Origin: Occallatibacter sp.
Lineage (GTDB): Bacteria > Acidobacteriota > Terriglobia > Terriglobales > Acidobacteriaceae
Direction of reading: 5' to 3'
Assembly: GCA_031296305.1 (NCBI GenBank)
Contig: JARLFZ010000030.1
Location: 1 to 39,666 of the forward strand
DNA: 39,666 nucleotides
A program made the position numbers and the translations under genes. Of the stretch, positions 9,303 to 25,494 are shown one piece after another; position 1 is the first letter of the stretch, and every line of letters starts with the position of its first letter. The notes beneath the pieces were generated by a model. That model saw only the letters and a list, made by a program, of their open reading frames with translations. It did not search any database and was not told where the DNA came from.

Positions 9303-9316
9303 CGTTCGTGTCTCCA

Positions 9317-9361
9317 GGAGCTAGCGGAGCTGGCGGAGTTAGCGGTGTTTGCGGAGCTAGC
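9317..9361. repeat. five tandem 9-bp units upstream of bcsZ
   Basis: Units on the plus strand: GGAGCTAGC, GGAGCTGGC, GGAGTTAGC, GGTGTTTGC, GGAGCTAGC. On the bcsZ mRNA they read GCTAGCTCC-like and could pair with the GGAG ribosome-binding region just downstream. No function is known. Confidence 0.8.
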
Positions 9362-9414
9362 GCGGCGTCCTTCGCAACAGGTTCCATTATCGCGCTTGAA
9401 GAGACATCCCTCAG

Positions 9415-9466
9415 CGGCTAAAGCCGAGCCATTATGCCCTGCTAATGGCACGACTGAAGTCGTGCC
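9415..9466. repeat. two short hairpins with TRAA loops
   Basis: CGGC-TAAA-GCCG at 9415-9426 and an eight-base-pair hairpin GGCACGAC-TGAA-GTCGTGCC at 9447-9466. They belong to the same group as the three hairpins at 22131-22232. Both lie in the 234-base gap between bcsA-bcsB and bcsZ. Confidence 0.75.
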
Positions 9467-9536
9467 CTTCCAAATCAGCGCGTCTTGCAGCGAGCCGTAA
9501 AATCGCACTCTTCAAAACGCTGTTACGAACCAGCTC

Positions 9537-12500
9537 TTAATCGCCCGTCATCGTGAGGCGTGCTCTGGCCCTGGCGCGCAACCATTGCCGGGTCCAGATA
9601 GCGAGCAGGAAAGCCAGAATAATAATCACCACTGCCGCCAGCCATGGCACCTGCGTGAACCACAACATCAAGCGCGTCCACCAGGGCAGCACACCAACAT
9701 GATAGACCTTGGAGCCGATGCGGAAAGACTCAAACTGCGATCCATGGAAGACCGCGACGGAATCCGAGATGTCGTGAGTCTGCTGCACCTCCATGAATTT
9801 GTCCATGAAGGGTGCGAATGCGGCGTCATCTTTGAAATGAAAGGCGACGATGGTGCGGTTGCCGGCGATGTCATAAGGGGATTGAATGCTCTCAATGATG
9901 GCGTCGGGGGTGCCTCCTGCGGTCAGAGTGCCGGATTCGGTGTGCTCGTTCGATTCGAGCTTCCACCAGGCGTGGTGCAGCAGGTTGACGAAGAAACCGT
10001 TCGTATCCCGCACCTGGATCTGCCCGCTGCCGAGAGAGACGGGAAGATGCGAGGCGAGCGTGTCGAAGGCTGGTTGATCGTTGCCCGTGCCGATGATGAG
10101 GAAGTCGGTGTTGGCGCCTTCATGCAGGGCATCGGGGCCGGCGACGGTTACGCGCAGACTAGGGTAACCGGTTTGGCGGCCGAAGTGGCCCATGAGCGTG
10201 ACGAAGGTTTCGATCTCCTGCTCGGTGGGCGCGAGTGGCAGCACCACCGTGGTTTCGGTCAGATCGGCAACGCGCGTGAACGGGAAGCCGGCGTTCGAGA
10301 AGAGTTCGAGATTGGGCATCGCAGCCCAGTGGGGATAATCACGCAGATCCAGATATGAATCGCCCAGGATGGCGCCCTGCATATTGATGGGTGTCGTATT
10401 CTTGCAGCCCGCATCTTTGAGCAACTGGAAGGTGAAGTCGAAGGACAACGTGTTGGAGAAAGGGCGAAGGTTGACGATAGGGACTGGCACGTCGGTTTGC
10501 ATGCGACGCGAGGTTTCCTGTCCGGGGATGAGCGGAATGGAGCCCATGAAGGCGTTGTTGACCTTCACCTGCATGCTGGAGATAGGCCCGATGGGAACGG
10601 AGTTGTAGCGGTAGACCACGTGAAGTCTGGTGTTGGGTCCTTCCGTGTTGAAGTAAATGTCGGGCGGAATGCGGAAGTAGACATTGAGCGGCGCGGTGCC
10701 GTCGCCCTGCATCTGGTCGGCTGTCGAGTAATCCCAGAGTGCGATGGTGCGGTCGGTGCGCGCCCAGCGCGGGGCATCATCGGGCGTGCGCTTGTCAGGC
10801 AGCTTGAGTGTGTTGATGGGGGCCTGCGGCCCGTCAAGCACCTCGGTATGGAGAGCGACGGCCTGCGCCGCCTTGATGAGATCGTTGGCATCGCCGCCCG
10901 TCACGATCAGGAGCTTGCTGGCCGGATCGCTGGGATTGTCGCGCATGGCCACGGTGGGCGAATGAATGCCGGATAGATTCAAGCCCGGTGGCAGGCTTGA
11001 CGGGTTCTCGGCAATGAGGATGACGTTGCCCGAAGGGATAGTTCCGATGTGCACCGGGAAACGGACCGGCCGATTCTCAGAGACCATGCCGAAGTAGCTG
11101 GTGACGATGCCGGCGGCTTGAACGGCTTTGAGCGAGGGCGCTGTAAGAAAGACCACGGGAACGCTGATGGGTTGAATGACGGCGGGATCGACGAACGGCA
11201 TGGGCAAATGCTTGAGGTCGTCGGCCAAATGCAGCAGATTGCCGCGAATGTCAATGTAGGTGCTGGGAAACACTCGGGCCCACAGCGTGGTGTTGGCCGG
11301 GTCTTCGCACTCCATGGTGTAGTGGCCAATGAATTCGAAGGTGAGCGTGTTGTTGTGGACCAGGAGTTCGGAAGGAATGGTGAAATCGGCCTCGGCATCG
11401 CGGCTGTCGGAACGGCCATTCGCCCCCGGCGTGGGCTGAATGGTGGCGAAAAGAGTTCCGTTCAACAAAAGCTGGAGGTGGCTCAACTGAGGAAGGAGGC
11501 TGGGCGAGAACGCGTAATGAACGTGGATCTTCGCGGCACCGATTACGTGGGTTTCAGGCAGCGTGAAGTAGACGCTGTGCCGGGTGTCGATCGAATGCAG
11601 TTCGATCTGGTCGATCTGGGATTCGCCGGCTTCGGCGAGCGTGAAGTGATCGTGATACTCGCCGGGAGGAACGGGAGCATTGATGTCGGTAGCGGGCGTC
11701 TGCGGAGCGGTGGCATTGGCCTGCGGCTGGGCGTGCGTCCCCTGGGCGTGCATGCTTTGACCGCCCCATGCCAGCGCCGCAGCCAGAAAGAGCAGGATGA
11801 GAGTGCGGGCGATGGAGAGCGAACTGGGCTTGCGCTTGGGCGAGTCGTGGTCGCTGAAGATGCTGCGCGCGGTGACCCACATGCCGCGCATGGAGATTTG
11901 GAAGATGCGACCCAGACTGCGCAGTACATTGTCGCTCTCGCGAGACTCGCCCCAGCCGAGCCAAGAGTCGGCGCGTGAAAAAAGCGCGACAGTCAGCACT
12001 TCCTGTTCTGCGATAGTCAAGTTTTCAAAACACACGCGCAACACCGATCCCTCCGAAGATACAACCGTAGCAGGTAGATCGACGGCCGCGGACGAAACGG
12101 AAAAGGCCAGATGCACCTGGGCCTGAGACATCACGTCGAGGGCCTCTGCGAGACGAATGCCGGTACCGCCGCTGGAGATGTCGATGGTTTCGGCGGCGAC
12201 CGATCGGCCGTCGGGGAATTTGACCACGAGCGGAGTCACGACATTGATGCGCACCGTGGCGCGCAACTGACGGAGTTCACGAGCGACGGCCGTACAAACG
12301 CCCAGGATGATGATGTTGAACGCGCACCACATGACATTCATCAGCACCGTCCCCGGATGGTCACGGTCGAAGATCAAAAAGCGTGGAATGGCAGCGATGA
12401 GGCCGGCAAAATTGAAGATGAGCAGAACCAGGAAAGGCTGAGCGATCCTGGAATCGTAAAAAGTATTCTTGACCACGCCGCCCTTGGCGGTGACGTTGAA

Positions 12501-13982
12501 CTTGCCCAGCCTGGGATTGATGAGCGCCAGCATGGTGGGCAGCAAAATGTAGGGCGAGAGCACGGTTTCGTAGATCTCGTTCCAGAACGAATAGCGGTGA
12601 TCGCCCTGGATGCGGGAATTGGTGACGTTGGAAAGAATGAGGTGAGGCAAAGCGTAGGCCAGAATGGCGGCCCAGTAGCCGGGAATGTTGGTGTGATTGA
12701 GAAGCAGATAGATCAGCGGCGCGGTGAGGAAGATGAGGCGCGGCACCGCGTAGAGGAAATGGCCCATGGCGTTGAAGTAGCAGAGCCGCTGCGGGAGGGT
12801 GAGTCCGGGGGCGAAGAGCGGATTGTCGGTGCGCAGCACCTGAATCATGCCGCGCGCCCAGCGAATGCGCTGGCCCACGTGCGCGGAGAGGCGCTCGGTC
12901 GCGAGTCCCGCGGCCTGGGGAATGTTGATGTAAGCCGTGTTCCACTTATGCATCTGCATGCGCAGAGCGGTGTGCGCATCTTCGGTGACGGTTTCGACGG
13001 CGATGCCGCCGATCTGGTCGAGCGCTTCGCGCCGCAGCACGGCACAGGAACCGCAAAAAAAGGCGGAGTTCCAGAAGTCGTTGCCGTCCTGGACGATTCC
13101 GTAAAAGAGCTCGCCCTCGTTGGGAATGATGCGGAACTGGGCGAGGTTGCGCTCAAATGGATCGGGAGAATAAAAGTGATGCGGAGTCTGCATCACGGCG
13201 AGCCGCGGGTCGCGCATAAACCAGCCCACGGTCATTTGCAAAAAACTGCGGGTAGGCACGTGATCGGAGTCGAAGATCGCGATGAGCGGAGAGTTGATGG
13301 TTTTGAGGGCGGCGTTGATGTTGCCCGCCTTGGCATGCTTGTTGTCAGGGCGCGTGCGGTAGCCAATGCCTGCATCGCGGGAGAACTGCTCGAACTCCGG
13401 CCGGCGGCCATCGTCGAGGAGGTACACGTGGAGTTTCGCAGCGGGCCAATCCATGTTGAGAGCACCCAGCGCGGTGTAACGGACCACGTCGAGAGGCTCG
13501 TTGTAGGTGGGAATGAGCACGTCGATGTGCGGCCATTCCCCGGGATTGTCGGGTAGCGCAACAGGAGCGCGGCGCAACGGCCAGATGGTCTGAAAATAGC
13601 CGAGGAAAAGAATGACGAATGCGTAGGCTTCGGCGCCCAGAAGACAAATGATGAAAAAGGCGTCGATGGCTCCGGCGTGGCTGGCCGGGTCCTGAAAGAA
13701 CCGCACCACTTGCGCGATGCGCCAATATCCGTAGCGGAAGGTGCAAAACACTGACAGCATCATGAGGGCGAGCGTGATGAGGTAGGAGTCGGAACCGCGC
13801 GCCAGAGCCAGCGCCACGGCGATGCTCACCAGGCCCAGGACCGCTTGCTGCTCCCAGTTGAGAGGCAAAACCGCTATGAAGAAGAAAACTGCCGCGGCCG
13901 CAAGCAGGAAAAGGAGCCGGATAATCCTGGTGAAGAAATTTTCGCCTGCCCCGATATCCTGCCAAACGCCCGAAACCGTCAT
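9537..13982 (-). CDS. bcsA: cellulose synthase, catalytic BcsA fused to BcsB
   Basis: A single 1,481-residue chain that joins the inner-membrane synthase BcsA to periplasmic BcsB. The BcsA half starts with several membrane helices, then a GT2 domain with DD 190-191 (LLDDGRRPEF), DSD 238-240 (FDSDHVP), TED with Asp335, and QRIRW 371-375. Next come further membrane helices and a PilZ c-di-GMP-binding domain (RQLRATVR with Arg571, 574 and 578; DISSGGTGI from Asp601). A hydrophobic signal-anchor at about 714-745 starts the BcsB half, which has carbohydrate-binding-like beta modules and a C-terminal membrane anchor (VPWLAAVVIIILAFLLAIW). Catalytic motifs are intact, so UDP-glucose polymerisation controlled by c-di-GMP is expected. 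Similar AcsAB fusions are known in acetic acid bacteria. The ATG overlaps the stop of the upstream gene by four bases. Confidence 0.95.
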   Translation of the reverse strand: MTVSGVWQDIGAGENFFTRIIRLLFLLAAAAVFFFIAVLPLNWEQQAVLGLVSIAVALALARGSDSYLITLALMMLSVFCTFRYGYWRIAQVVRFFQDPASHAGAIDAFFIICLLGAEAYAFVILFLGYFQTIWPLRRAPVALPDNPGEWPHIDVLIPTYNEPLDVVRYTALGALNMDWPAAKLHVYLLDDGRRPEFEQFSRDAGIGYRTRPDNKHAKAGNINAALKTINSPLIAIFDSDHVPTRSFLQMTVGWFMRDPRLAVMQTPHHFYSPDPFERNLAQFRIIPNEGELFYGIVQDGNDFWNSAFFCGSCAVLRREALDQIGGIAVETVTEDAHTALRMQMHKWNTAYINIPQAAGLATERLSAHVGQRIRWARGMIQVLRTDNPLFAPGLTLPQRLCYFNAMGHFLYAVPRLIFLTAPLIYLLLNHTNIPGYWAAILAYALPHLILSNVTNSRIQGDHRYSFWNEIYETVLSPYILLPTMLALINPRLGKFNVTAKGGVVKNTFYDSRIAQPFLVLLIFNFAGLIAAIPRFLIFDRDHPGTVLMNVMWCAFNIIILGVCTAVARELRQLRATVRINVVTPLVVKFPDGRSVAAETIDISSGGTGIRLAEALDVMSQAQVHLAFSVSSAAVDLPATVVSSEGSVLRVCFENLTIAEQEVLTVALFSRADSWLGWGESRESDNVLRSLGRIFQISMRGMWVTARSIFSDHDSPKRKPSSLSIARTLILLFLAAALAWGGQSMHAQGTHAQPQANATAPQTPATDINAPVPPGEYHDHFTLAEAGESQIDQIELHSIDTRHSVYFTLPETHVIGAAKIHVHYAFSPSLLPQLSHLQLLLNGTLFATIQPTPGANGRSDSRDAEADFTIPSELLVHNNTLTFEFIGHYTMECEDPANTTLWARVFPSTYIDIRGNLLHLADDLKHLPMPFVDPAVIQPISVPVVFLTAPSLKAVQAAGIVTSYFGMVSENRPVRFPVHIGTIPSGNVILIAENPSSLPPGLNLSGIHSPTVAMRDNPSDPASKLLIVTGGDANDLIKAAQAVALHTEVLDGPQAPINTLKLPDKRTPDDAPRWARTDRTIALWDYSTADQMQGDGTAPLNVYFRIPPDIYFNTEGPNTRLHVVYRYNSVPIGPISSMQVKVNNAFMGSIPLIPGQETSRRMQTDVPVPIVNLRPFSNTLSFDFTFQLLKDAGCKNTTPINMQGAILGDSYLDLRDYPHWAAMPNLELFSNAGFPFTRVADLTETTVVLPLAPTEQEIETFVTLMGHFGRQTGYPSLRVTVAGPDALHEGANTDFLIIGTGNDQPAFDTLASHLPVSLGSGQIQVRDTNGFFVNLLHHAWWKLESNEHTESGTLTAGGTPDAIIESIQSPYDIAGNRTIVAFHFKDDAAFAPFMDKFMEVQQTHDISDSVAVFHGSQFESFRIGSKVYHVGVLPWWTRLMLWFTQVPWLAAVVIIILAFLLAIWTRQWLRARARARLTMTGD

Positions 13983-15430
13983 CGCTCACTCCAGCGCACT
14001 CCGCGGAAGCTGGTGCTTGCGGCTGCAGAGAGGCTTTTGACCCATCCCGCAAGGCTGGAGTAATCCTCGGTCACGGCGGAGTTGGGAGCATAATCCATCA
14101 CGGTCATGCCCTCGGCCAACGCCTCGCTGACGGCCGGGGTGTGGCGCAGAGTGAAAGGCAGCAGCCGATCGCCCAACTGTTCACGGAGCACTTCGCGCAC
14201 GTCGAGATGCAGCGGCAGTGAGGGATCGAACTGGTTGAGCACATAGTAAGGAAGTGCCGCCTTGCCGTTGGTGCCGTTGTTGTGGTCGAAGAAAGCGTCG
14301 ATGGAGCTGACGCTGACCACGGAACACATGTCGGGAACCAGGGGCACGAGGATCTGCGGCGACAAACGCATGATGCGGCGTGTGGTGGCGCCTGAGGCAG
14401 TGGCCAGATCGATGACGACGCGACTGACGCCGCGGGCGTGTTTGAGAATCTCTGCCGTGAGCGCTTCAGCGCTGGCCAGTTCAGAGTCCAGCGTCTCGGG
14501 ATCGAGAGTGATCATCTGGATGGGCGCGTCGCCACTGGCGACTGGCGGACTGAAGGTGCGTATCAGGCCGGGGCGCTGGTCGCGGGCGCCAAAGAAAAAG
14601 GGCAACAAGCCGTAGGCAGCGGTATCGACCAGCAGAACGCGCTCGCCACGCGCGGAAAGCACGCGGCCGAGAGTGGCCACGAGGCTGGTTTTGCCCACGC
14701 CTCCGGCCAGCGAAAAGACCGCGAGAACGGGAGCGCGCGCGGTCGCGGGCGCCGGCGCAGACTGCGCGGGTACATTGTCTTCAAAGACGCTGCGCAGAGC
14801 GAACCAGCGCGACACGAGGTGATCGCGCGAACTCTGCAGCGTGTCCACAGGCGAAGGCGGTAGCGCAGGCGGGCCGACGGATTCGGGACGCTCCGGCATC
14901 AGCCAGGCAGGGCGGCCAGCGTCTTCGCTGGCATCGGTTGACAACCATGGCCCGCGCTGCGGAGAAGCTGCGCCTTCCTGCGAGGGAGCGGAAGCGGCCG
15001 GTGGTGAAGGCTGGAGTTGGGGAGGCATCGCAGGGTAGCGATCCTGCGGCGGTTGTTGCCAAGCACGTTGTTGCGCGGCTTGCGGAGCAACTTGTGCCTG
15101 CTGTGCGGCACGTTGCGCAGCCAACTCCGCGGCCTGGCGCGCACGCTCCTGTGCGGCTTCCCGCGCAGCTTGCTGCGCGGCAAGTTCGCGCTGCCGCATT
15201 TCATCGGGAGTGCGAGCGGCTTCGGCAGCGGGTTGCGCCTCAGCTTCCTGCTGTGCCCGCAGCCTTTCTTGTTCGATGGCCTCTTCCGTGCGCTGCCGGG
15301 TTTTCTCGCGAATCTCCGCGCGCGAGGCCGAGAAATCGCGATACTTGCCACCGTGCAAATTAGCCCAGGAATATAAGGATGCCACGTCCTCCGGCGGCTC
15401 GTTCGGATCGGGTAGCGCGTGCTCAGTCAT
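13979..15430 (-). CDS. bcsQ: BcsQ-type ATPase with N-terminal BcsR-like segment
   Basis: A 483-residue first gene of the bcs operon. Residues about 13-45 (EDVASLYSWANLHGGKYRDFSASRAEI, read as its main segments) resemble the BcsR/BcsP short domain. A long Gln/Ala/Glu/Arg coiled-coil (about 45-120) and a Pro-rich linker (to about 215) follow. From about 232 there is a MinD/ParA-like ATPase: P-loop LAGGVGKTS with Lys247, LLVDTAAYG (Walker A'), VVIDLATASGATT and LVPDMCSVVSVSS. The P-loop has the usual lysine but Ala where deviant Walker A proteins have the signature Lys. BcsR and BcsQ form a complex in E. coli that supports and localises the synthase; here they seem joined in one chain. The start at 15430 has only a weak AGGGG upstream. 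BcsR identity rests on local similarity and is less sure than BcsQ. Confidence 0.8.
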   Translation of the reverse strand: MTEHALPDPNEPPEDVASLYSWANLHGGKYRDFSASRAEIREKTRQRTEEAIEQERLRAQQEAEAQPAAEAARTPDEMRQRELAAQQAAREAAQERARQAAELAAQRAAQQAQVAPQAAQQRAWQQPPQDRYPAMPPQLQPSPPAASAPSQEGAASPQRGPWLSTDASEDAGRPAWLMPERPESVGPPALPPSPVDTLQSSRDHLVSRWFALRSVFEDNVPAQSAPAPATARAPVLAVFSLAGGVGKTSLVATLGRVLSARGERVLLVDTAAYGLLPFFFGARDQRPGLIRTFSPPVASGDAPIQMITLDPETLDSELASAEALTAEILKHARGVSRVVIDLATASGATTRRIMRLSPQILVPLVPDMCSVVSVSSIDAFFDHNNGTNGKAALPYYVLNQFDPSLPLHLDVREVLREQLGDRLLPFTLRHTPAVSEALAEGMTVMDYAPNSAVTEDYSSLAGWVKSLSAAASTSFRGVRWSER

Positions 15431-16089: not shown

Positions 16090-17367
16090 TCACGGCACAA
16101 TGGCAGTTTTGATTTCGCTTTCGGTCGACCGGTTCATCAACTTCTCAAAGACGCGGTTTAGCTCGTACAGGTGGGCATGGCCGGTGATGAAGGCGCTGGC
16201 CTGGAAGCGTCCACTGGCGATGAGCGCGAGGGCTTTGCGGCAGATGGCCGGCGTGTGATGGAAAGTGGCGCGGAGCGTGATGTCGCTATAGTGAATGCGG
16301 TTGGTGTCGAGCGTGACGTGAGTGTTCTTGGCGCAGCCGCCGAAGAAGTTCACGGTGCCGCCCTTGCGCACCAGTTCCACCGCTTCCTGCCATGCCTCGG
16401 GCACGCCGACAGCCTCAATGGCGATATCGACGCCGCGGTCTTTGGGCGTGAGGGCACGCGCCTCCAGGATCGCTTTGCGGATCGAGGAGCTCTGCACCAC
16501 GTGGGTCGCGCCCAGTTGCCGCGCCGCCTCCACCTGGCCGTCGTGTCGCACCAGAGCGATGGTCTCGTATCCCGCCAGCGCGGCCACATGCAGAATCATG
16601 AGTCCGAGCGGGCCGCCGCCGATGATGGCGATGATGTCGCCCTCGCGGGGACGCGAATCTTCGAATCCATGGACGGCGCAGGCCAGCGGCTCAGTGAGAG
16701 CCGCGTGCTCCAGCGGCACATTTTCCGGAACGATGAATGTATTCTTCGCAACGATTCGTTCCGGAATGCGGATGAACTCGGCATAGGCTCCATTGTTGAA
16801 GAGCAGGTCGTCGCACAGATTCTCCTGGTCGCGAGTGCAGAAGTAACATTTGCCGCAGGGCGCGGAGTTGAGCGCCACCACGCGGTCGCCGGGCGCGTAA
16901 TCCGTGACGCCTTCGCCTGCTTCGACCACAGTGCCCGCCATTTCGTGGCCGAAGAGCGCGGGGGGCACAATCATGCGCGCGTGATAGCCGCGGCGAAAGA
17001 CCTTCAGGTCGGTGCCACAGGTGAGGGCCGCGCCCACGCGAACGACCAGCTCGCCGGTTTCGGCTTTGGGAATCGGAACCTGCTCGATGCGGACGTCTTC
17101 GCGGCCGTGGAGGACGGCGGCCTGCATGGTGCCGCGCCCGAGAAACGCATGCTCAACGGTTCTGCGGCCGAGGCTGACTGCGGATTCGACCGTGCGACGG
17201 CCTTTGACGACCACCGCGTCGACGGTATTGAGACCGGCTTCGACAACCGTTTCGACGGTATCCAAGCCGCCCTCGACAACGTTCTCGACGGTCTTGCGGC
17301 TCTCTTCGACGACGGTTTCAACCGTTTTGCGGCCGCGACGGATCGCGTCTTTCACCGTATTCGCCAT
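16090..17367 (-). CDS. zinc-dependent MDR dehydrogenase with N-terminal 11-residue repeats
   Basis: A 425-residue protein: about 80 extra N-terminal residues followed by a complete medium-chain (sorbitol/threonine-type) dehydrogenase. Core features: catalytic zinc ligands Cys117, His141-Glu142 (GHEMAG) and Glu226 (TEPLAC); structural zinc Cys171, 174, 177 and 185; Rossmann glycines IIGGGPLGLM. The N-terminus is six consecutive 11-residue units with core (K/R/D/N)TV(E/D)xVV, residues 11-76, likely a long amphipathic helix. The start has GAGG six bases before the ATG. Last gene of the hopanoid cluster, 26 bases after a related dehydrogenase. It should oxidise or reduce an alcohol/aldehyde with NAD(P)(H). 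The substrate is unknown; a hopanoid side-chain sugar is suggested by context only. Confidence 0.85.
   Translation of the reverse strand: MANTVKDAIRRGRKTVETVVEESRKTVENVVEGGLDTVETVVEAGLNTVDAVVVKGRRTVESAVSLGRRTVEHAFLGRGTMQAAVLHGREDVRIEQVPIPKAETGELVVRVGAALTCGTDLKVFRRGYHARMIVPPALFGHEMAGTVVEAGEGVTDYAPGDRVVALNSAPCGKCYFCTRDQENLCDDLLFNNGAYAEFIRIPERIVAKNTFIVPENVPLEHAALTEPLACAVHGFEDSRPREGDIIAIIGGGPLGLMILHVAALAGYETIALVRHDGQVEAARQLGATHVVQSSSIRKAILEARALTPKDRGVDIAIEAVGVPEAWQEAVELVRKGGTVNFFGGCAKNTHVTLDTNRIHYSDITLRATFHHTPAICRKALALIASGRFQASAFITGHAHLYELNRVFEKLMNRSTESEIKTAIVP
17140..17337 (-). repeat. six 33-bp tandem units coding 11-residue repeats
   Basis: On the protein: RGRKTVETVVE, ESRKTVENVVE, GGLDTVETVVE, AGLNTVDAVVV, KGRRTVESAVS, LGRRTVEHAFL. 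On the DNA, GACGGT-type words recur every 33 bases in the first units, so the array arose by tandem duplication. Hydrophobic V/V/V positions with flanking charge fit an 11/3 helix. Confidence 0.93.
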
Positions 17368-17393: not shown

Positions 17394-18548
17394 CTACTCT
17401 GCGCCGGCCCCGGGCACAGGCTCCATCATAATCTTCATGGAACCGGGGCGGGGATTGGATGCGATTTCAATAGCTTCGACCGCTGCTTCAAACGGGAAAC
17501 GATGCGAAATCAGTTGCGTCAGGTCGAAACCGTTGCGGTAGCCATCGAAGACCAGGCCCGTTACTTCATCCAGGATCGGGAACGATGAAGAGTATGAGCC
17601 GAGCAGGGTCTTCTCGTCCACACAAACCGCAGCCGGGTCAAAAGTGGCCTCGCCGTGCTGGGTCTGGGCAAAGAGCATCACTTTGCCGCCGGGGCGTACC
17701 GCATCCATGGCAGTGCGGATGAGCGCGTTGCCGCCCACGGCCAGGATGACGGCATCCGCGCCACGGCCTTCGGTCTCGGCAAACACGCGTTCCACCACAT
17801 TCTCGGTGCCCGCGTGGATAGGGTTGGTGAGGCCGAATCGCGCGGCGATGGAGTGGCGCTCATCAAAAAGGTCAGAGGTGAGCACGCGAGCGCCGGTGCG
17901 CGCGGCGAGCACGGCGTGCATGAGGCCGATGGGGCCCTGGCCGATGACGAGCACCGTATCGTCGGCGGCGAGATTGAGAAGCTTGGTGCCTTTAAGCACG
18001 GTCATCAGGGGCTCGACAAAAGCCGCCTGCTCGAAGGGCACACCGTCCGGAATGTGCACCACGCCGCGGTTGGCCACGACGAAGTCCATGACGCGGATGT
18101 ACTCTGCAAAGCCGCCGCCTGAGGGCTCGAAGCCCGCGGTAGCTCCGGTTCTCTTGTAGAGCGGGCACTGCGCGGGTGTGTTTTTGCGGCAGTAGTAGCA
18201 CTCGCCGCAGGGGACGTGATGAAAGGACATGACGCGGTCGCCGACGGAAAAATTCGTGACGCCTGCGCCTACCGCCGCGACGACACCCGCCATTTCGTGG
18301 CCGAAGATGCGCGGCGCGGAGTGCGAGCCCATGTGGATCTTTTTGAGATCTGTGCCGCAGACGCCGCAAGTGGCAATCTTGATGAGCAGTTCGCCCGAAC
18401 CGATCTGCGGAACGGGGACGGTTTCAAGGCGCATGTCGTTGATGCCGCGATAGACGACGGCGCGCATGGTGGAGGGGATTTTTTCGTCGAGATGCAATTT
18501 GGGGTTGGAGATTTGGGTAGCCATTCTGTTGTTCTTGTGTGACCTCAT
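17394..18548 (-). CDS. zinc-dependent MDR dehydrogenase (sorbitol/threonine dehydrogenase type)
   Basis: A 384-residue medium-chain dehydrogenase. Catalytic zinc ligands are Cys64 (CGVCGTDL), His84-Glu85 (GHEMAG) and the EP of FVEPLMTV; structural zinc cysteines are 114, 117, 120 and 128; the cofactor motif is VLVIGQGPIGLM. The ATG at 18548 overlaps the hpnG stop by four bases (ATGA), so it is probably translationally coupled; a later in-frame ATG at 18524 is the more usual-looking N-terminus and is also possible. It has no repeat extension, unlike its neighbour, with which it shares the fold and probably a common ancestor. Substrate unknown. The tight coupling to hpnG makes ribosylhopane-derived aldehyde or alcohol a reasonable candidate (inference); general polyol oxidation is the alternative. 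Confidence 0.85.
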   Translation of the reverse strand: MRSHKNNRMATQISNPKLHLDEKIPSTMRAVVYRGINDMRLETVPVPQIGSGELLIKIATCGVCGTDLKKIHMGSHSAPRIFGHEMAGVVAAVGAGVTNFSVGDRVMSFHHVPCGECYYCRKNTPAQCPLYKRTGATAGFEPSGGGFAEYIRVMDFVVANRGVVHIPDGVPFEQAAFVEPLMTVLKGTKLLNLAADDTVLVIGQGPIGLMHAVLAARTGARVLTSDLFDERHSIAARFGLTNPIHAGTENVVERVFAETEGRGADAVILAVGGNALIRTAMDAVRPGGKVMLFAQTQHGEATFDPAAVCVDEKTLLGSYSSSFPILDEVTGLVFDGYRNGFDLTQLISHRFPFEAAVEAIEIASNPRPGSMKIMMEPVPGAGAE

Positions 18549-19237
18549 TGATCGGCAGATTGCCCATCGAGGAATTCAAGCAGCGATTCCGCGATGCTTT
18601 GGGAAGCCTTTTTACTATTTTCGCCCATCCGGAGGAGTGCGGGCCAGTACCAGGGGCGCAGAATGGCAAAGAGAGTAAACCGTGCGAGCTGAAATTGGCC
18701 GGTGGGCGTGAGGAATCGATTGAAGTCCGGCAGGCGGTCGGTGAGGGCGTCGCTCACTCCTTTGATGGCGTAAAACGGAATCTCGCGCATGGCGGCGAGG
18801 CGGGCGATCGCGGCGGCTTCCATGTCGACGAGGGAGGCCTGGTAGGTGGACGTGAGGCGGCGTTTTTCGGAATAAGGAGCGACTTTGGGGCTGGTGGCCA
18901 GCCAGAGTTCTCCCGCGCCGGCGTCGCAGCGAAAGCGCTCGCCTGTACTCACGTCGATGACTCCGGCGACGTTGTAGGCCGTGCCTGCGGGGATTTCGGC
19001 GCGAAGTGCTCCGGCCCAGCCGATGGAAAAAACCAGATCGATGGGTCCGCCGTCTTCAATGGCGGCGAAGGCGCGGGTTGCGGCGGCTTGACCGGCTCCG
19101 GCGCAGGCGGCGATCCATTCTTCTTCTTCGTCGCGTTGCGCCCAGAAGTGGATGCCGTTGCGGGTTGAGTGCGGCCAGCCGGCGACGAGCGGCTTGAGCT
19201 CGCCGGGCATGGCGGCGATGATGGCGGTGCGGGTCAT
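18545..19237 (-). CDS. hpnG: HpnG, adenosylhopane nucleosidase/phosphorylase
   Basis: A 230-residue nucleoside-phosphorylase-superfamily protein. It begins TAIIAAMPGELKPL, typical of hopanoid HpnG and MTA/SAH nucleosidases. Substrate-site signature LVDMEAAAIA (Asp138, Glu140) and catalytic-type Asp163 in AIKGVSDAL are present. HpnG removes adenine from adenosylhopane to give (phospho)ribosylhopane, the branch point for bacteriohopanetetrol and aminotriol. The start at 19237 has GAGG four bases upstream. It lies between hpnA, separated by a 48-bp palindrome, and the first MDR dehydrogenase, which it overlaps. Confidence 0.88.
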   Translation of the reverse strand: MTRTAIIAAMPGELKPLVAGWPHSTRNGIHFWAQRDEEEEWIAACAGAGQAAATRAFAAIEDGGPIDLVFSIGWAGALRAEIPAGTAYNVAGVIDVSTGERFRCDAGAGELWLATSPKVAPYSEKRRLTSTYQASLVDMEAAAIARLAAMREIPFYAIKGVSDALTDRLPDFNRFLTPTGQFQLARFTLFAILRPWYWPALLRMGENSKKASQSIAESLLEFLDGQSADQ

Positions 19238-19327: not shown

Positions 19328-20317
19328 TTACGGTGCGTAGCCGTTGGCGCGGAACCAGTCGATGGCGGCGCGCATGGCGGGGTAGACGGGGAGGATGCGG
19401 AAGCCGAGCTCTTGCTGGGCGCGGGCGCTGGAGGCGTACATTTTCTTGCGGCCCATGCGGACTTCTTCGAGCGTGGCGCGCGGCTCTTCGCCACGGATGC
19501 GGCCGGTGATGAGCTCCTCAAAGAACGCGTAGGTGGCGGCGACGGCGAAGGGGATTTTGACCGTGGGCGAGGGTATGCCGGTGATGGCCGACATCTTGTC
19601 GAGGATCTGCTTGAGGGTGAGGTTCTCGCCGCCGAGGATGTAGCGGCGGCCGGGTGTGCCTTTGGTGAGAGCGAGAACGTGGGCGCGCGCCACTTCGGTG
19701 ACGTCGACGAGATTGAGGCCGGTGTCGATGTAGGCGGGAAATTTGCGGTTGAGAAAGTCGACGAAGATGCGGCCTGTCGGCGTGGGCTTGCGATCGTTGG
19801 GGCCAATGGGGGTGGTGGGGTTGAGGATGATGACCTGCTGACCTTTGTGCGCGGCTTGGATCGCTTCCTGTTCCGCCAGGAATTTCGAACGCTTGTAGTG
19901 ACCGACCATGTCGCCGAGCGAGACCGGCGTGTCTTCGTTGGAGACGATGCCGTTGGTAAAGAAGTGCATCGTCGCGACGCTCGATGTGTAGACGAAGCGC
20001 CTGACGCCGGCCTCGCGGGCCATGCGCAGCAGCTCGCGCGTGCCGTCGACGTTGGCGCGGTACATAGCTGCGGGATCGGGAATCCAGAGGCGGTAGTCGG
20101 CGGCAACGTGGACGACGGCGTCGATGCTGGCGAGAGCGCCTTTTATTGACTCTGGATTCGCGAGATCGCCGACGACAGCTTCACCAGGGATGCCTTCAAG
20201 GTTGGCGAGACTGCTCGATTTACGGGTGAGGAGGCGTAGGTTGGCGCCCTCGGCCGCCAAGGCCTTGGCTACGTGATGGCCGACAAAACCGGTGGCGCCT
20301 GTGACGAAAACGTTCAT
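19328..20317 (-). CDS. hpnA: HpnA, hopanoid-associated NAD-dependent sugar epimerase
   Basis: A 329-residue extended short-chain dehydrogenase. It has the Rossmann motif GATGFVG (7-13) at the extreme N-terminus, VVHVAADYRLW, the catalytic Tyr141/Lys145 pair (HYKRSKF) and the NPTTPIGPND segment characteristic of the hopanoid-associated epimerase family. The precise reaction of HpnA is not firmly established. It is found in hopanoid clusters and is thought to modify the C35 side-chain sugar or a sugar attached to it. The start follows the preceding gene by 24 bases. Length is normal for the family. Confidence 0.88.
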   Translation of the reverse strand: MNVFVTGATGFVGHHVAKALAAEGANLRLLTRKSSSLANLEGIPGEAVVGDLANPESIKGALASIDAVVHVAADYRLWIPDPAAMYRANVDGTRELLRMAREAGVRRFVYTSSVATMHFFTNGIVSNEDTPVSLGDMVGHYKRSKFLAEQEAIQAAHKGQQVIILNPTTPIGPNDRKPTPTGRIFVDFLNRKFPAYIDTGLNLVDVTEVARAHVLALTKGTPGRRYILGGENLTLKQILDKMSAITGIPSPTVKIPFAVAATYAFFEELITGRIRGEEPRATLEEVRMGRKKMYASSARAQQELGFRILPVYPAMRAAIDWFRANGYAP

Positions 20318-20935: not shown

Positions 20936-22048
20936 TCACTGCTTAGCCAATTCGCGCTCTGGTTCAGTGATCTGCACCAGCGACGACGGGCCGGTGGGCA
21001 TTTGCTCATTAAGCAGGTCGAGCGCGTGCTTGTCGGGATAGAGCGAGAAGTTGGCCTTGACCATAGCGAAGAAGCCTTTGAGCGAACCGAAACCATCGAG
21101 TACGGCAGTGGGCTCGTAGCCGCAACTCACCATGCAGTTGGCGCACTTGGGATTACCGGAGCCTACGCCGTACTCTTCCCACCTGGTGGTTTCCATTAGC
21201 TCCTTGAAGGTGTCGGCGTATCCGTCCTGGAGCAGATAGCAGGGGCGCTGCCAGCCGAAGATATTGAAGGCGGGCGAGCCCCACGGCGTGCAGTCGTAGT
21301 TACGGTCGCCCATCAAAAACTCAAGAAAGAGGGGCGACATGTTGAACTTCCACGTCTTCTTGCGGTTCGACAGAATGGCGCGGAAGAGGCGGCGCACGCG
21401 GGCGCGGCCCATGAAGTGGGTTTGGTCGGGCGCCTTGTCGTAGCTGTAGCCGGGCGAAAGCACGATGCCCTCGACGCCGATGGCCATCATCTCATCAAAA
21501 TGAGCGCGAACGTGGTTAGGATCGGTGCCATCAAAAAAGGTGGAGTTGGGCGTGACGCGAAAGCCGCGCTTCACGGCCTCCTTGATGCCTTCGAGGGCAA
21601 TGTCGTATCCGCCCTCGCGGCAGACGGCGAAGTCGTGGTCATCGCGCTGGCCATCGAGATGCACGGAGAAGGTGAGGTACTTCGAAGGCGTGAATTCGTG
21701 CAGCCGGCGCTTGAGCTCAAGTGCATTCGTGCACATATACACGTACTTTTGGCGCGCAACAAGGCCATTCACGATGTCGACAATTTGGGGATGCAGCAGC
21801 GGTTCGCCGCCGGGAATAGCGACCATGGGCGCGCCGCATTCTTCCGCGGCCGCGAAGCATTGCTCCGGGGTGAGCTGCTTTTTGAGGATGTGCGGCGGAT
21901 ACTGCACCTTTCCGCAGCCGGCACAGGCCAGGTTGCAGCGGAACAGCGGCTCCAGCATGAGCACGAGTGGATAGCGCTTGCGGCCCGTGAGCTTCTTCTT
22001 GAGGACGTAGGTTGCGACCGTCCACATCTGGGAGATTGGAACTGCCAT
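20936..22048 (-). CDS. hpnH: HpnH, radical SAM adenosyl-hopene transferase
   Basis: A 370-residue radical SAM enzyme that joins the 5'-deoxyadenosyl group of SAM to diploptene, giving adenosylhopane, the first step of side-chain extension. The cluster motif is CNLACAGC (Cys38, Cys42, Cys45). Also typical are KYPL-like RKRYPLVLMLEPLFRC, IPGGEPLLHP, LDGQRDDHD and a C-terminal domain with PKCANCMVSCGYEPT. It starts MAVPISQMWTVATYVLKKKL, as in characterised HpnH. It is separated from shc by 286 bases of repeats. Confidence 0.95.
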   Translation of the reverse strand: MAVPISQMWTVATYVLKKKLTGRKRYPLVLMLEPLFRCNLACAGCGKVQYPPHILKKQLTPEQCFAAAEECGAPMVAIPGGEPLLHPQIVDIVNGLVARQKYVYMCTNALELKRRLHEFTPSKYLTFSVHLDGQRDDHDFAVCREGGYDIALEGIKEAVKRGFRVTPNSTFFDGTDPNHVRAHFDEMMAIGVEGIVLSPGYSYDKAPDQTHFMGRARVRRLFRAILSNRKKTWKFNMSPLFLEFLMGDRNYDCTPWGSPAFNIFGWQRPCYLLQDGYADTFKELMETTRWEEYGVGSGNPKCANCMVSCGYEPTAVLDGFGSLKGFFAMVKANFSLYPDKHALDLLNEQMPTGPSSLVQITEPERELAKQ

Positions 22049-22334: not shown

Positions 22335-24362
22335 TCAGCCGCTGATTGCGGCGCGTTCCATGGCCCGCTTGTAGGTTGTGAGCGCCATCAGCGGGAAATA
22401 CTGGCGATACATGGTGTAGGCCAAATAGAAAACCTTGGGGAAGCCGGTTCCGGTGATGATTCCCTGGCGCGTAGGCCCATCGCCCATGGACTCGTCCCAG
22501 CTTCCGTCTTCGCGTTGCCGCTCGAGCAGCCAGCGCACGCCCTTGGCGATGGAATCAGAGCGGTCGTCGCCCGCAGCAAGCAGCGCCATCAGCGCCCACG
22601 CGGTTTGCGACGGAGTGCTCGTACCGATGCCGCGCGTGTCGGGCTCATCGTAGGTGCCGACACTCTCGCCCCAACCGCCATCGGCATTCTGCACCATGCG
22701 AATCCACTCGGCCGCCTGCTGCACCTGCGGCTCCAGATGATCCACACCAATGGCGTCGAGACCGCGCAGCACCAGGAAGGTGCCGTAGATGTAGTTCACA
22801 CCCCAGCGGCCGAACCAGCTTCCGTCGGGCTCCTGCTCTTTGAAGATGAAGTCAATGGCCTTTTGCACTCGCTTGTCATCGCGAGTGTAGCCGTAGACGG
22901 CCAGCGTCTCCAGCATGCGCCCCGTGATGTCGACCGACGGCGGATCGAGCATGGCGTTGTGATCGGCGAAGGGGATGTACTGGAAGATCATCTTGGTGTT
23001 GTCTTTGTCGAAGCTGCCCCAGCCGCCGTTCCTGCATTGCATGGCGAACTCCCACGCAATGGCGCGCTGCGCCACCTGGTGCTGGTAGCGTTCGCGGGGA
23101 TTGTCGACCTTACTAAGCGCAAGCAGAACCTGCGCCGTATCATCGGTATCCGGGTAAAACTCATTGTTGAACTCGAAGTACCAGCCGCCCGGTTCAGTGT
23201 TGGGCACCTTTACTGCCCAGTCGCCCTTGTGGCGGACTTCTTTGGCCAGCATCCAGTCAACAGCTTTCAGCATGCGTGGATCGTCGCGCGGCACGCCTGC
23301 TTCGCCCAGCGCGTAGACGGCCTGCGCCGTATCCCACACCGGACTCATGCACGGCGTCATGCGGAAGGTCGGCTCGGGCATCTCCGGAGTGGGCGCCTGC
23401 TCGATGCCCAGCTTCTCAAACTCGTCGCGCGCGCGAATCACCTGCGGATCGTCTTCGGAGTAACCCAGGCAACGCAACGCAATGATGGCGTTGAGCATGG
23501 CAGGATAAATCGCGCCGAGACCGTCGGTCATTTCCAGGCGGTCGAGCATCCACTTCTCGGCACGCTTCAAAGCCAGTTTGCGCAGCGGGCGAATATGCAC
23601 GGCCTCAGACCAGTGCATGAGGCGGTCGAGAACCAGAAAGAAATTGCGCCACGAGATGAAGTGCTTGCGATCGACGCGCAGACGCATAATGGCGTTGGCG
23701 CGGCCGCCTACGAAGAGTTCGTCGATTCCCTGCTCCGCGGGGATTTTCTTGAACGGCTTTTTGGCGAACATGATGGCCAACGGCACGAGGATGGACCGCG
23801 ACCACGACGAGATTTCGTAGATATTGAAGTAGAACCACTTGGGAAAGAGGACAATCTCCGGCGGAATGGCGGGCACGGCGTCGTAGTCGTACTCGCCCAA
23901 TGCACAGAGATACATTTTTGTGAAAGTGTTGCACGCAGTGACGCCGCCATGCGCCAGCACCCACTCGCGGCACTTGGTAAGGTGCGGGTCAGTGGCTGGA
24001 ATTCCCATCAGCTTGGCCGCGGAGTAGCACTTGACCGAGAGCGAAATGTTGCCGGGACCGCCGGGATAGATGCTCCAACTGCCGTCGTCGTTCTGGTAGC
24101 GCATCATCTCGGTGCAGGCGCGCTGGAGGCGACCCGGATCTCCGCTTTCGAGCAGGGTATGCAGAAAGATGTAGTCGGCCTCGAGCATCGAGTCGGCCTC
24201 GAGTTCGCTGCACCAGTAGCCGTCAGGATGCTGCAGGCTGAGCAGGAAATCGCGCGCGAGGCCGATCGCCGCATCGACATCGCCCAAGTCGGCGTCGATC
24301 CGTCCAAATCTGGGCTGGCCGAAACTGGGCGTTACGCTATGTGTCTTCTGCTCTGGAGTCAT
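22335..24362 (-). CDS. shc: squalene-hopene cyclase
   Basis: A 675-residue triterpene cyclase that converts squalene to hopene/hopanol at the membrane. The catalytic DTDDTA motif is at 405-410, with Asp407 as the likely general acid. Several QW-type repeats are clear: GYWCSELEADS, DDGSWSIYPGG, NGGWGSFDKDN, PDGSWFGRWG, ADGGWGESVG and EDGSWDESM, ending GTGFPKVFYLAYTMYRQYFP. The ATG at 24362 is chosen: the frame stays open to 24518, but that would overlap ispH, and there is no other start codon between them. No clear Shine-Dalgarno is seen. Length is normal for the family. It follows ispH by 103 bases. Confidence 0.95.
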   Translation of the reverse strand: MTPEQKTHSVTPSFGQPRFGRIDADLGDVDAAIGLARDFLLSLQHPDGYWCSELEADSMLEADYIFLHTLLESGDPGRLQRACTEMMRYQNDDGSWSIYPGGPGNISLSVKCYSAAKLMGIPATDPHLTKCREWVLAHGGVTACNTFTKMYLCALGEYDYDAVPAIPPEIVLFPKWFYFNIYEISSWSRSILVPLAIMFAKKPFKKIPAEQGIDELFVGGRANAIMRLRVDRKHFISWRNFFLVLDRLMHWSEAVHIRPLRKLALKRAEKWMLDRLEMTDGLGAIYPAMLNAIIALRCLGYSEDDPQVIRARDEFEKLGIEQAPTPEMPEPTFRMTPCMSPVWDTAQAVYALGEAGVPRDDPRMLKAVDWMLAKEVRHKGDWAVKVPNTEPGGWYFEFNNEFYPDTDDTAQVLLALSKVDNPRERYQHQVAQRAIAWEFAMQCRNGGWGSFDKDNTKMIFQYIPFADHNAMLDPPSVDITGRMLETLAVYGYTRDDKRVQKAIDFIFKEQEPDGSWFGRWGVNYIYGTFLVLRGLDAIGVDHLEPQVQQAAEWIRMVQNADGGWGESVGTYDEPDTRGIGTSTPSQTAWALMALLAAGDDRSDSIAKGVRWLLERQREDGSWDESMGDGPTRQGIITGTGFPKVFYLAYTMYRQYFPLMALTTYKRAMERAAISG

Positions 24363-24465
24363 GCGGTCTGAAACGCCTCGAATTTCTGGGGAAAGCGTAT
24401 CTGCCTTCGAAACATTTGCGCCCCATGGCGCGCTCAAGTGCCGCGCCGGTTCTCGCGATCGAGTT

Positions 24466-25494
24466 TTAGCTGACGGCGATGGATTCGGATCCGCTGGCGC
24501 TGCCAATGGCCTGCACAATCTCGGGGGGAAGGCCGAAGCGCACGTTTTCTGGCATCACCTCAACCTCTTCGACGTTTTCAAAGCCGTTCTGACGCAAATA
24601 ATTCACCACGTCCTCGACCAGGACCTCCGGAGCTGACGCGCCGGCGGTAACAGCGACTGTGTCGACACCGGCGAGCCACTTGGGATTGATGGCCTGAGAG
24701 TTATCAATCAGGTACCCGATGGTGCCGAGGTTGCGCGAGACCTCGACAAGGCGGTTGGAGTTGGAGCTGTTTGTGGATCCCACGACCAGGACTAACCCTG
24801 CATTGTGCGCCACGTTGCGCACCGCAACTTGACGGTTCTCGGTGGCGTAACAGATGTCCTGCGAGTGGGGACCGACGATGTTGGGATACTTGACCTTGAG
24901 TGCGTGAATAATGTCGCGTGCCTCGTCGAGCGACAGCGTGGTCTGGGTGAGATAGGCGACGCGGTCGGGATTGGGCACCTGCAGCACCTCGACCTCGGCA
25001 ACGTTTGAAACCACTTGGGTTACGCCTGGCGCCTCGCCCAGCGTGCCCTCAATCTCGTCGTGGTCGCGATGGCCGATGAGCACTAGCGAATACCCCTGCT
25101 TGGCAAATTTGACGGCCTCAAAGTGCACCTTGGTTACAAGTGGGCAGGTGGCGTCGATGACCTTTAAATTGCGGCCTTTGCTGCGCTCGCGCACTGCCGG
25201 CGACACGCCGTGTGCCGAGTAAATGACGCGCTGACCGTCGGGGACGTCGTCGATTTCATGGACAAAGATCGCGCCCTTTTCCGCTAATTCGTTCACAACA
25301 TAGCGGTTATGCACAATCTCGCGGCGCACGTAGATGGGCGCGCCGAAGGTTTCAAGCGCAATCTTCACGATGTCGATGGCGCGCACCACGCCGGCGCAAA
25401 AACCACGTGGCTTGAGCAACAACACCCTCTTCTGGCTGGGGGAAGTGCCGGGGGATCCGTGATGGGGAATGGAATCGAGGACAGTCGTAGTCAC
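24466..25494 (-). CDS. ispH: 4-hydroxy-3-methylbut-2-enyl diphosphate reductase IspH
   Basis: A 342-residue [4Fe-4S] enzyme of the MEP pathway that makes IPP and DMAPP. The three cluster cysteines are visible: Cys33 (GFCAGV), Cys117 (DATCPLV) and Cys215 (DICYAT). Also present are the conserved YSAHGVSP, GHRDHDEIEGTLGE and GSTNSSNSNRLVEV substrate-binding segments. GTG start at 25494 with an extended -10 element only six bases upstream, so the mRNA may be leaderless. As first gene of the hopanoid cluster it ties precursor supply to hopanoid synthesis. Confidence 0.96.
   Translation of the reverse strand: MTTTVLDSIPHHGSPGTSPSQKRVLLLKPRGFCAGVVRAIDIVKIALETFGAPIYVRREIVHNRYVVNELAEKGAIFVHEIDDVPDGQRVIYSAHGVSPAVRERSKGRNLKVIDATCPLVTKVHFEAVKFAKQGYSLVLIGHRDHDEIEGTLGEAPGVTQVVSNVAEVEVLQVPNPDRVAYLTQTTLSLDEARDIIHALKVKYPNIVGPHSQDICYATENRQVAVRNVAHNAGLVLVVGSTNSSNSNRLVEVSRNLGTIGYLIDNSQAINPKWLAGVDTVAVTAGASAPEVLVEDVVNYLRQNGFENVEEVEVMPENVRFGLPPEIVQAIGSASGSESIAVS

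What the first reader, a model, noticed from the sequence alone, without database searches (positions are those of the whole stretch)
16090..17367. Dehydrogenase with six hendecad repeats at its N-terminus
The MDR enzyme has an extension made of six 11-residue units with a TVE-VV core, ahead of a normal zinc dehydrogenase. Eleven-residue repeats form 11/3 amphipathic helices, as in alpha-synuclein and LEA proteins, which lie on membranes or form coiled assemblies. I know of no zinc dehydrogenase with this architecture. In a hopanoid cluster, a membrane-lying helix would bring a soluble enzyme to a lipid substrate.
Basis: partly seen in the sequence, partly recalled or inferred. Interest (0 to 1): 0.75.

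Follow-up and report, generated by a model that had tools for sequence, protein, structure and literature searches.

The report
Dehydrogenase helix made from its own start
In one genus of soil Acidobacteria, an enzyme of the hopanoid (membrane lipid) gene cluster often carries an extra front arm of 11-residue repeats that look like copies of the enzyme's own first eleven residues, since changed towards a fat-surface helix of the perilipin and synuclein type.

Summary
42 of 84 distinct homologue sequences carry such an array, as do 43 of 80 genomes of the genus. Extension length is exactly 4+11n residues in 35 of 42, and the units match the enzyme's own N-terminal 11-mer better than any other part of the enzyme (42 of 42 protein, 40 of 42 DNA). 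I read this as tandem duplication of the gene's first codons, turning a strand-forming segment into a helix. The array is coding and constrained (dN/dS 0.11, enzyme 0.07), nearly proline-free and amphipathic at the 11/3 angle. AlphaFold2 gives one long helix at low to medium confidence. Presence is patchy and linked mainly to the gene's 5' end, as if the allele moves by recombination. Lipid-surface anchoring is the likeliest role (about 0.5), untested. The enzyme lies in an operon with hpnG and is a candidate, unproven, for the missing ribosylhopane reductase.

The parts
16090..17367 (-). MDR1: extended zinc-dependent dehydrogenase, 425 aa
   Evidence: Pfam ADH_N 1e-24 and ADH_zinc_N 3.5e-23
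17128..17367 (-). N-terminal extension, residues 1-80
   Evidence: dN/dS 0.107 for the extension over 11 pairs of homologues
   Evidence: best match to the enzyme's own N-terminal 11-mer among 336 in-frame windows, DNA and protein (L001 row)
17161..17325 (-). five full units TVExVVExGxx, residues 15-69
17131..17160 (-). last unit, one residue short, residues 70-79 (TVEHAFLGRG)
   Evidence: sequence; alignment A3
17098..17130 (-). parent segment: enzyme's own first 11-mer TMQAAVLHGRE (residues 80-90), strand 1 of the fold
   Evidence: strand 80-88 in the model; best match to the window's units among 7110 in-frame windows of 11 window CDSs, protein and DNA
16093..17127 (-). catalytic MDR domain, residues 81-425
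   Evidence: Foldseek best 4ejm E 2e-33, and 1e3j (sorbitol dehydrogenase) 1.3e-32; C117, H141, E142, C171, C174, C177, C185 invariant in 43 rows
17394..18548 (-). MDR2, paralogous zinc dehydrogenase without the array, between hpnG and MDR1
   Evidence: directly before MDR1 in 77 of 80 loci
18545..19237 (-). HpnG-like phosphorylase
   Evidence: TIGR03468 5e-24, 85 bits, below its cut-off of 187.1
19328..20317 (-). HpnA
   Evidence: TIGR03466 1.4e-138, over cut-off
20936..22048 (-). HpnH
   Evidence: TIGR03470 1.1e-157, over cut-off
22335..24518 (-). squalene-hopene cyclase
   Evidence: TIGR01507 2.1e-220, over cut-off
24466..25494 (-). IspH
   Evidence: TIGR00216 6.7e-94, over cut-off

Best explanation
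A zinc-dependent MDR of the hopanoid cluster gained an N-terminal array by tandem duplication of the first 33 or so coding bases of its own gene (supported by sequence comparison; the event itself is inferred). The parent segment is strand 1 of the enzyme fold; the copies have drifted, under selection against amino-acid change, into a nearly proline-free amphipathic 11/3 helix of 6-8 units (constraint, moment and composition shown; helix predicted). The likeliest role (inferred) is a reversible, weakly hydrophobic anchor that lays the enzyme on a lipid surface, the membrane or a squalene/hopanoid-rich phase, in the manner of perilipin and synuclein 11-mers. It assists a lipid-pathway enzyme but is not needed for catalysis, so it is gained and lost between species, probably by recombination of the gene's 5' end (inferred). 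The enzyme's reaction is not known; reduction of ribosylhopane to bacteriohopanetetrol is a candidate.
For: Origin: units rank first against the own N-terminal 11-mer in 42 of 42 (protein) and 40 of 42 (DNA) long genes; first of 7110 windows for the window's own units; extension length 4+11n in 35 of 42, the 4 being the MATT-type start of the short form; in L013 the head matches its own N-terminus at 30 of 33 nt; the N-terminal motif is present in unextended outgroups, which gives the direction. Constraint: dN/dS 0.107 for the extension and 0.070 for the enzyme over 11 disjoint pairs. Helix: moment at 98.18 degrees beyond shuffles in 42 of 42; median 0.30 against 0.10-0.16 for head-to-tail copies of the unmutated parent 11-mer of five short genes, so the amphipathicity arose after duplication; 3 prolines in 3063 residues; helix 4-74 and 3-78 in two models. 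Lipid likeness: hydrophobic fraction 0.36, aromatics 0.008, charged 0.30, against 0.35-0.47, 0.002-0.02 and 0.15-0.24 printed for Plin4, Plin3 and alpha-synuclein, moments 0.257-0.35 (PMC5889406 Table 1 as shown in a passage). Setting: hpnG-MDR2-MDR1 order in 71 of 80 loci. Movement: the tree with all long rows held together is rejected, p-AU 0.0007; the label is tied most strongly to codons 1-30 of the enzyme and the last 15 codons of MDR2.
Against: No lipid-binding data. Pfam Perilipin (E 0.1) and Phasin_2 (E 0.16) are far below cut-off, and an unrelated Fer2_BFD scores a little better (E 0.051). Block pLDDT of the helix 53-67. 8 of 42 extensions peak at 163 degrees, and 4 of 42 do not pass the shuffle test as a maximum over 80-120 degrees. 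Near-zero net charge (median +1.5) is not classic for acidic membranes. A Plin4 peptide of 66 residues was cytosolic (PMC5889406), so 66-88 residues may be marginal. Type C units (L065) rank the parent only second or third in the wider panel, and the window's margin there is modest. The tree is poorly resolved: bootstrap not settled, and one held-together subset beat the free tree; the protein tree's starred branches force only one change. Some windows away from the 5' end also show slight linkage.
Confidence: 0.5

Rival explanations
1. The array is a right-handed hendecad coiled coil that joins subunits or a partner (for example MDR2 or HpnG); it assembles enzymes rather than binding lipid.
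For: 11-residue periodicity and a narrow Val/Val/Ile face; many E and R/K residues that could pair; MDR enzymes are oligomers (recalled). Plin4 helices too are suggested to contact each other by polar residues (PMC8064757, abstract).
Against: Gly at the ninth place of the unit in 223 of 236 units is unusual for a stable coiled coil (recalled); few Leu and Ile (0.061 and 0.025 of residues); unit number varies from 6 to 8, which a fixed partner would hardly allow.
Confidence: 0.25
2. A replication-slippage product that is tolerated, disordered and without a role.
For: Patchy presence in the genus (43 long, 28 short, 9 without an orthologue-level match, of 80) and origin by tandem duplication.
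Against: dN/dS 0.107 over 11 pairs; V, E and G kept in 229, 214 and 223 of 236 units while unit pairs within genes differ at 0.58 of synonymous sites; amphipathicity higher than in unmutated copies; none of 42 has fewer than 6 units.
Confidence: 0.12
3. The extension matters at the level of RNA or translation (start context, MDR2-MDR1 coupling), not as protein.
For: It lies exactly at the 5' end, and the linkage of the label is strongest there.
Against: Median distance from the MDR2 stop to the start codon is alike in both forms; strong bias against non-synonymous change.
Confidence: 0.05

Closest known systems
Perilipin 4 / perilipin 3 and alpha-synuclein 11-mer amphipathic helices
   Same: 11-residue units plotted as 3-11 helices; almost no aromatics; T, V and G prominent here as printed for Plin4; similar hydrophobic fraction and moment
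   Different: Eukaryotic; no family match here (Pfam Perilipin 12 bits against a cut-off of 33); here only 66-88 inserted residues, fused to an enzyme, more charged, and apparently derived from the enzyme's own N-terminus
Zinc-dependent MDR polyol/threonine dehydrogenases (sorbitol dehydrogenase 1e3j, 4ejm, TDH)
   Same: Whole catalytic domain, zinc ligands, fold
   Different: None of the 23 NCBIfam families matched reached its cut-off; N-terminal array in part of one genus only
ug2 of the acidobacterial hopanoid clusters (Sinninghe Damste et al. 2017, PMC5462960, passages seen)
   Same: Zn-binding alcohol dehydrogenase of about 350 aa preceding hpnC; in T. gabretensis (L093) the MDR1 orthologue is followed by ORFs that look like hpnC-hpnE (gene names by eye)
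   Different: The passages seen do not mention an extension; in this genome MDR1 is followed by tRNA-Lys and the HpnD-like hits lie on another contig
YtxH and DUF883 proteins
   Same: Weak hits of the array profile elsewhere in the genus (E 2e-6 to 7e-6) fall on such proteins (two of the three scanned)
   Different: They carry what looks like a transmembrane segment of their own (by eye); no relation by descent is claimed

Membership tests
Zinc-dependent MDR dehydrogenase | ADH_N and ADH_zinc_N domains over Pfam cut-off | tested here: met
   87.2 bits (cut-off 23.5) and 82.4 bits (cut-off 31.8)
Zinc-dependent MDR dehydrogenase | catalytic and structural zinc ligands conserved (ligand roles recalled) | tested here: met
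   C117, H141, E142 and C171, C174, C177, C185 invariant in 43 rows
Known MDR equivalog (TDH, IolM, etc.) | score over the curated cut-off | tested here: not met
   best hit tdh 162.6 bits against 458.35; none of 23 listed families over cut-off
Perilipin family | Pfam Perilipin match over cut-off | tested here: not met
   12 bits against 33
11-mer (3-11) amphipathic lipid-binding helix | hydrophobic moment near 98 degrees above shuffles | tested here: met
   at 98.18 degrees 42 of 42; maximum over 80-120 degrees 38 of 42; global peak at 97.5-99.5 in 34 of 42 (window's at 98.0) and at 163-163.5 in 8 of 42
11-mer (3-11) amphipathic lipid-binding helix | binds lipid and folds on it | not testable with these tools
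   needs circular dichroism, flotation or fractionation
Hendecad coiled coil | defined oligomer held by the array | not testable with these tools
   only single chains were folded
Ribosylhopane reductase | gene in the hopanoid cluster with hpnG | tested here: met
   hpnG-MDR2-MDR1 order in 71 of 80 loci, MDR2-MDR1 alone in 6, MDR1 alone in 3, two of these Verrucomicrobia
Ribosylhopane reductase | reduces ribosylhopane to BHT | not testable with these tools
   the responsible enzyme is stated as not yet established (PMC12583986, passage)

The most novel reading that the evidence does not exclude
A lipid-surface helix born inside bacteria from an enzyme's own first beta strand: the first 33 coding bases were tandemly copied, the copies were selected into an amphipathic 11/3 helix above a minimum length (six or more units, none shorter among 42), and the resulting anchor allele moves between species of one genus, bringing the missing ribosylhopane reductase, or another hopanoid oxidoreductase, to the membrane.
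Probability: 0.3. Interest if true: 0.8.

Novelty: new variant of a known kind. Interest (0 to 1): 0.62.

Why it matters
It offers a traceable birth of an amphipathic helix: parent segment, copies, unextended relatives and selection can all be read in one genus. It points to a specific gene pair for the open step from ribosylhopane to bacteriohopanetetrol. Two named strains, Occallatibacter savannae AB23 (long, L061) and Terracidiphilus gabretensis S55 (short, L093), form a natural comparison.

Tried and rejected
Start-codon artefact (true start at M81): rejected on synonymous/non-synonymous rates and start spacing. PDB sequence hits of the extension (designed armadillo proteins, E down to 1.2e-12) rejected: in the three alignments shown each single stretch scores at most 7.4 bits, so the sum is a repeat effect. 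The profile's best PDB hit, 7rdr (circular tendon repeat protein, E 1e-11), likewise has no stretch that passes alone; 2ptf (E 0.0067, one stretch) and weaker hits were not followed. Pfam beta-solenoid YdcK for L053 (E 6e-4, 20 bits, cut-off 30) not accepted, but it agrees with the 163-degree peak of that type and is left open. PHROGs gave only hits of unknown function (best E 6e-4 for L048). The array as a module of other proteins: found at this gene in 43 of 80 genus genomes, elsewhere in the genus only as three weak hits of YtxH/DUF883 type, and in 2 of 396 genomes of a phylum sample, both of this genus. An order sample gave 22 of 249, of which 20 of the genus and two at E 0.008 whose fetched stretches showed none of the motifs I sought. 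Intermediate forms with 1-5 units: none among 42 long genes, nor among the 12 other 5' ends read. Literature searches: by titles and abstract starts, no listed paper reports this architecture; only open-licence full texts are held.

Rows dropped: of 110 loci, L091 lacked the anchor motif, and loci with identical catalytic DNA were merged, leaving 84 (42 long, 42 short); 9 more were left out of the DNA tree and 19 out of the linkage counts (65 rows, 59 for MDR2). The first dN/dS table held a pair with a frameshifted catalytic part (L049) and loci used twice; one search replaces it, with 11 hand-picked pairs of equal extension length. The shuffle test (41 of 42) compared a wider and finer set of angles in the real arrays than in the shuffles and is withdrawn; one search repeats it on equal terms. 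Ranks, pairs and label permutations concern related sequences and are not independent trials.

Full report
The observation. The ORF at 17367-16090 (minus strand) encodes 425 residues: a complete zinc-dependent MDR dehydrogenase from residue 81 (Pfam ADH_N and ADH_zinc_N; nearest folds 4ejm and sorbitol dehydrogenase 1e3j) behind an 80-residue extension. The extension is a tandem array of 33 bases per unit (TRF score 92). The finding is real and its coordinates are right.

How widespread. Among 149 related genomes (own genome included), 43 of 80 genomes of the same genus have a match that runs into the array (three cut by contig ends), 28 have one that starts after it, and 9 have no orthologue-level match; these are my counts from the listed rows. 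Outside the genus the best matches start at query residue 51 or later, and the five of them whose 5' ends I read have no array (L124, L125, L126, L131, L132). A profile of the array finds the same 43 at this gene, plus two genomes with weak hits elsewhere (45 of 80), and 2 of 396 genomes of a phylum sample, both of this genus. From I took 84 distinct homologues: 42 long and 42 short. T. gabretensis S55 and two distant Verrucomicrobia rows are short; Occallatibacter savannae AB23 is long.

Where the repeat came from. Short genes of the genus typically begin MATT-MKAAILHGRED; long genes begin MAxT-VKDAILRGRK or similar and then repeat. Extension lengths are 4+11n in 35 of 42 (70, 81 or 92 residues), and one or two residues off in 7; by register 17 have six inserted units, 23 seven and 2 eight. 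For each long gene I compared its units with every in-frame 33-base window of its own catalytic domain. The first window, the enzyme's own N-terminal 11-mer, ranked first in 42 of 42 at protein level and 40 of 42 at DNA level; for the head unit alone in 34 and 32 of 42. Against 7110 windows of 11 genes of the window, the window's own units again prefer that segment, by a modest margin (mean 18.8 against 17.3 identical bases), and MDR2's homologous N-terminus comes second at protein level; type C units (L065) put it second or third. In L013 the head matches its own N-terminus at 30 of 33 bases. Outgroups have the N-terminal motif without an array, so the enzyme segment is the parent. The distance from the MDR2 stop codon to the start codon is alike in both forms (medians 9.5 and 10 nt), as expected for growth just inside the gene.

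Constraint. Over 11 hand-picked pairs of homologues that share no locus, the extension has pS 0.379 and pN 0.055 (dN/dS 0.107), against 0.070 for the enzyme. Units within a gene differ at 0.58 of synonymous and 0.27 of non-synonymous sites, and at 0.10 of non-synonymous sites in six core positions. V, E and G of the motif are kept in 229, 214 and 223 of 236 units. The array is thus translated and selected.

Structure. AlphaFold2 with a 43-row alignment gives a single helix 4-74 (block pLDDT 53-67) and then strand 80-88, which is the parent segment. A second model, of the L048 homologue, gives helix 3-78 (blocks 60-72 for residues 1-70, 44 for the next) but no clear strand 1, in a stretch of pLDDT under 50. 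If the first is right, the same ancestral letters are strand in the enzyme and helix in the copies. The hydrophobic moment at 98.18 degrees exceeds 1000 shuffles (p<0.05) in 42 of 42; as a maximum over 80-120 degrees, or over 80-180 degrees, in 38 of 42. The global peak lies at 97.5-99.5 degrees in 34 of 42 and at 163-163.5 in 8, all of one sequence type. Head-to-tail copies of the unmutated parent 11-mer of five short genes would have only 0.10-0.16 at 98.2 degrees, the real arrays 0.22-0.36: the amphipathicity was gained after duplication. Prolines are 3 in 3063 residues.

What it resembles. The composition (hydrophobic 0.36, aromatic 0.008, charged 0.30; T 0.12, V 0.19, G 0.10) and moment (median 0.30) lie close to the values printed for Plin3, Plin4 and alpha-synuclein (PMC5889406, passages; computed there by Heliquest, for long helices as a mean over consecutive helices, so only roughly comparable). 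Pfam's weak matches of the window's extension include Perilipin (E 0.1) and Phasin_2 (E 0.16), well below cut-off, beside Fer2_BFD (E 0.051) and MEDS (E 0.2), which mean nothing here: likeness, not membership. The Plin4 paper also reports that a 66-residue Plin4 peptide stayed cytosolic while longer ones bound, so arrays of 66-88 residues may be near a threshold; that none of 42 has fewer than six units fits, but common descent could explain it too.

Patchiness. On a DNA tree of the catalytic part without its first 11 codons (75 rows) long and short need 17 changes, and holding all long rows together is rejected (p-AU 0.0007). Caution: the bootstrap had not settled, many forks are open, a subset test found a better tree than the free search, and on the protein tree (13 changes) starred branches force only one. 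Between-type over within-type distance is 1.18 in codons 1-15 and 1.07 in codons 16-30 (0 of 1000 permutations each) and 1.07 in the last 15 codons of MDR2 (3 of 1000); the 12 other MDR1 windows tested lie at 0.99-1.03 (two of them at 44 and 48 of 1000), the other MDR2 windows at 1.00-1.04 (one at 13, one at 42 of 1000). I read this as exchange or loss of the 5' end by recombination, after what may be one origin, since the 42 long genes share a recognisable head. Three sequence types of array need 8 changes among the long rows of that tree, in line with movement or with poor resolution.

What the enzyme does. The gene row is ispH-shc-hpnH-hpnA-hpnG-MDR2-MDR1, all on the minus strand. hpnG-MDR2-MDR1 is found in 71 of 80 loci, long or short; 6 show MDR2-MDR1 and 3 show MDR1 alone, two of these Verrucomicrobia (most of the rest are short contigs). 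In T. gabretensis MDR1 is followed by ORFs that look like hpnC-hpnE (by eye), which makes it ug2 of Sinninghe Damste et al. 2017 (PMC5462960, passages), there a gene of unknown function, absent from Chloracidobacterium thermophilum. A 2025 paper states that the enzyme converting ribosylhopane to bacteriohopanetetrol has not been established (PMC12583986, passages). A polyol-dehydrogenase-like pair next to hpnG is a natural candidate (inference). Against it as the general answer: C. thermophilum, which makes bacteriohopanepolyols, lacks ug2 by that paper.

Verdict. A real, selected, genus-limited innovation on an ordinary enzyme fold, with a readable origin. Lipid anchoring is the likeliest role, coiled-coil assembly the main rival, and neither has been tested.

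Noticed in passing
17394-18548: MDR2, a second zinc dehydrogenase directly between hpnG and MDR1, conserved in the gene row; with MDR1 a candidate pair for the missing reductase step of hopanoid side-chain synthesis.
   Followed up: partly
18545-19237: The HpnG-like protein scores only 85 bits against a cut-off of 187.1 for TIGR03468: a strongly diverged HpnG.
   Followed up: no
G000:C113:11736-13549 (L137-L139): HpnD-like hits (below the family's cut-off) lie on another contig in this genome, whereas in T. gabretensis (L093) such genes appear to follow MDR1 directly (by eye).
   Followed up: partly
1729-15430: Cellulose synthesis genes beyond tRNA-Lys: a BcsQ-like ATPase (Pfam), a 1481-aa ORF that looks like fused BcsA-BcsB, and a 2135-aa TPR-like ORF that looks like BcsC (the last two by eye).
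   Followed up: no
L152, L153: YtxH-like proteins of the genus carry 11-mer VDRGKEQV repeats; the L152 one has a sub-threshold Apolipoprotein match (E 4.6e-6, 26.9 bits, cut-off 90).
   Followed up: partly
L048, L051, L053, L054, L055, L056, L060, L070: Arrays of the RATVETAIEHG type peak at 163 degrees, a strand-like period, so some arrays may prefer another structure.
   Followed up: partly
L049 (catalytic part), L044 (C-terminus): L049 looks frameshifted in the catalytic domain and L044 has about 30 extra C-terminal residues; possible assembly errors or decay.
   Followed up: no
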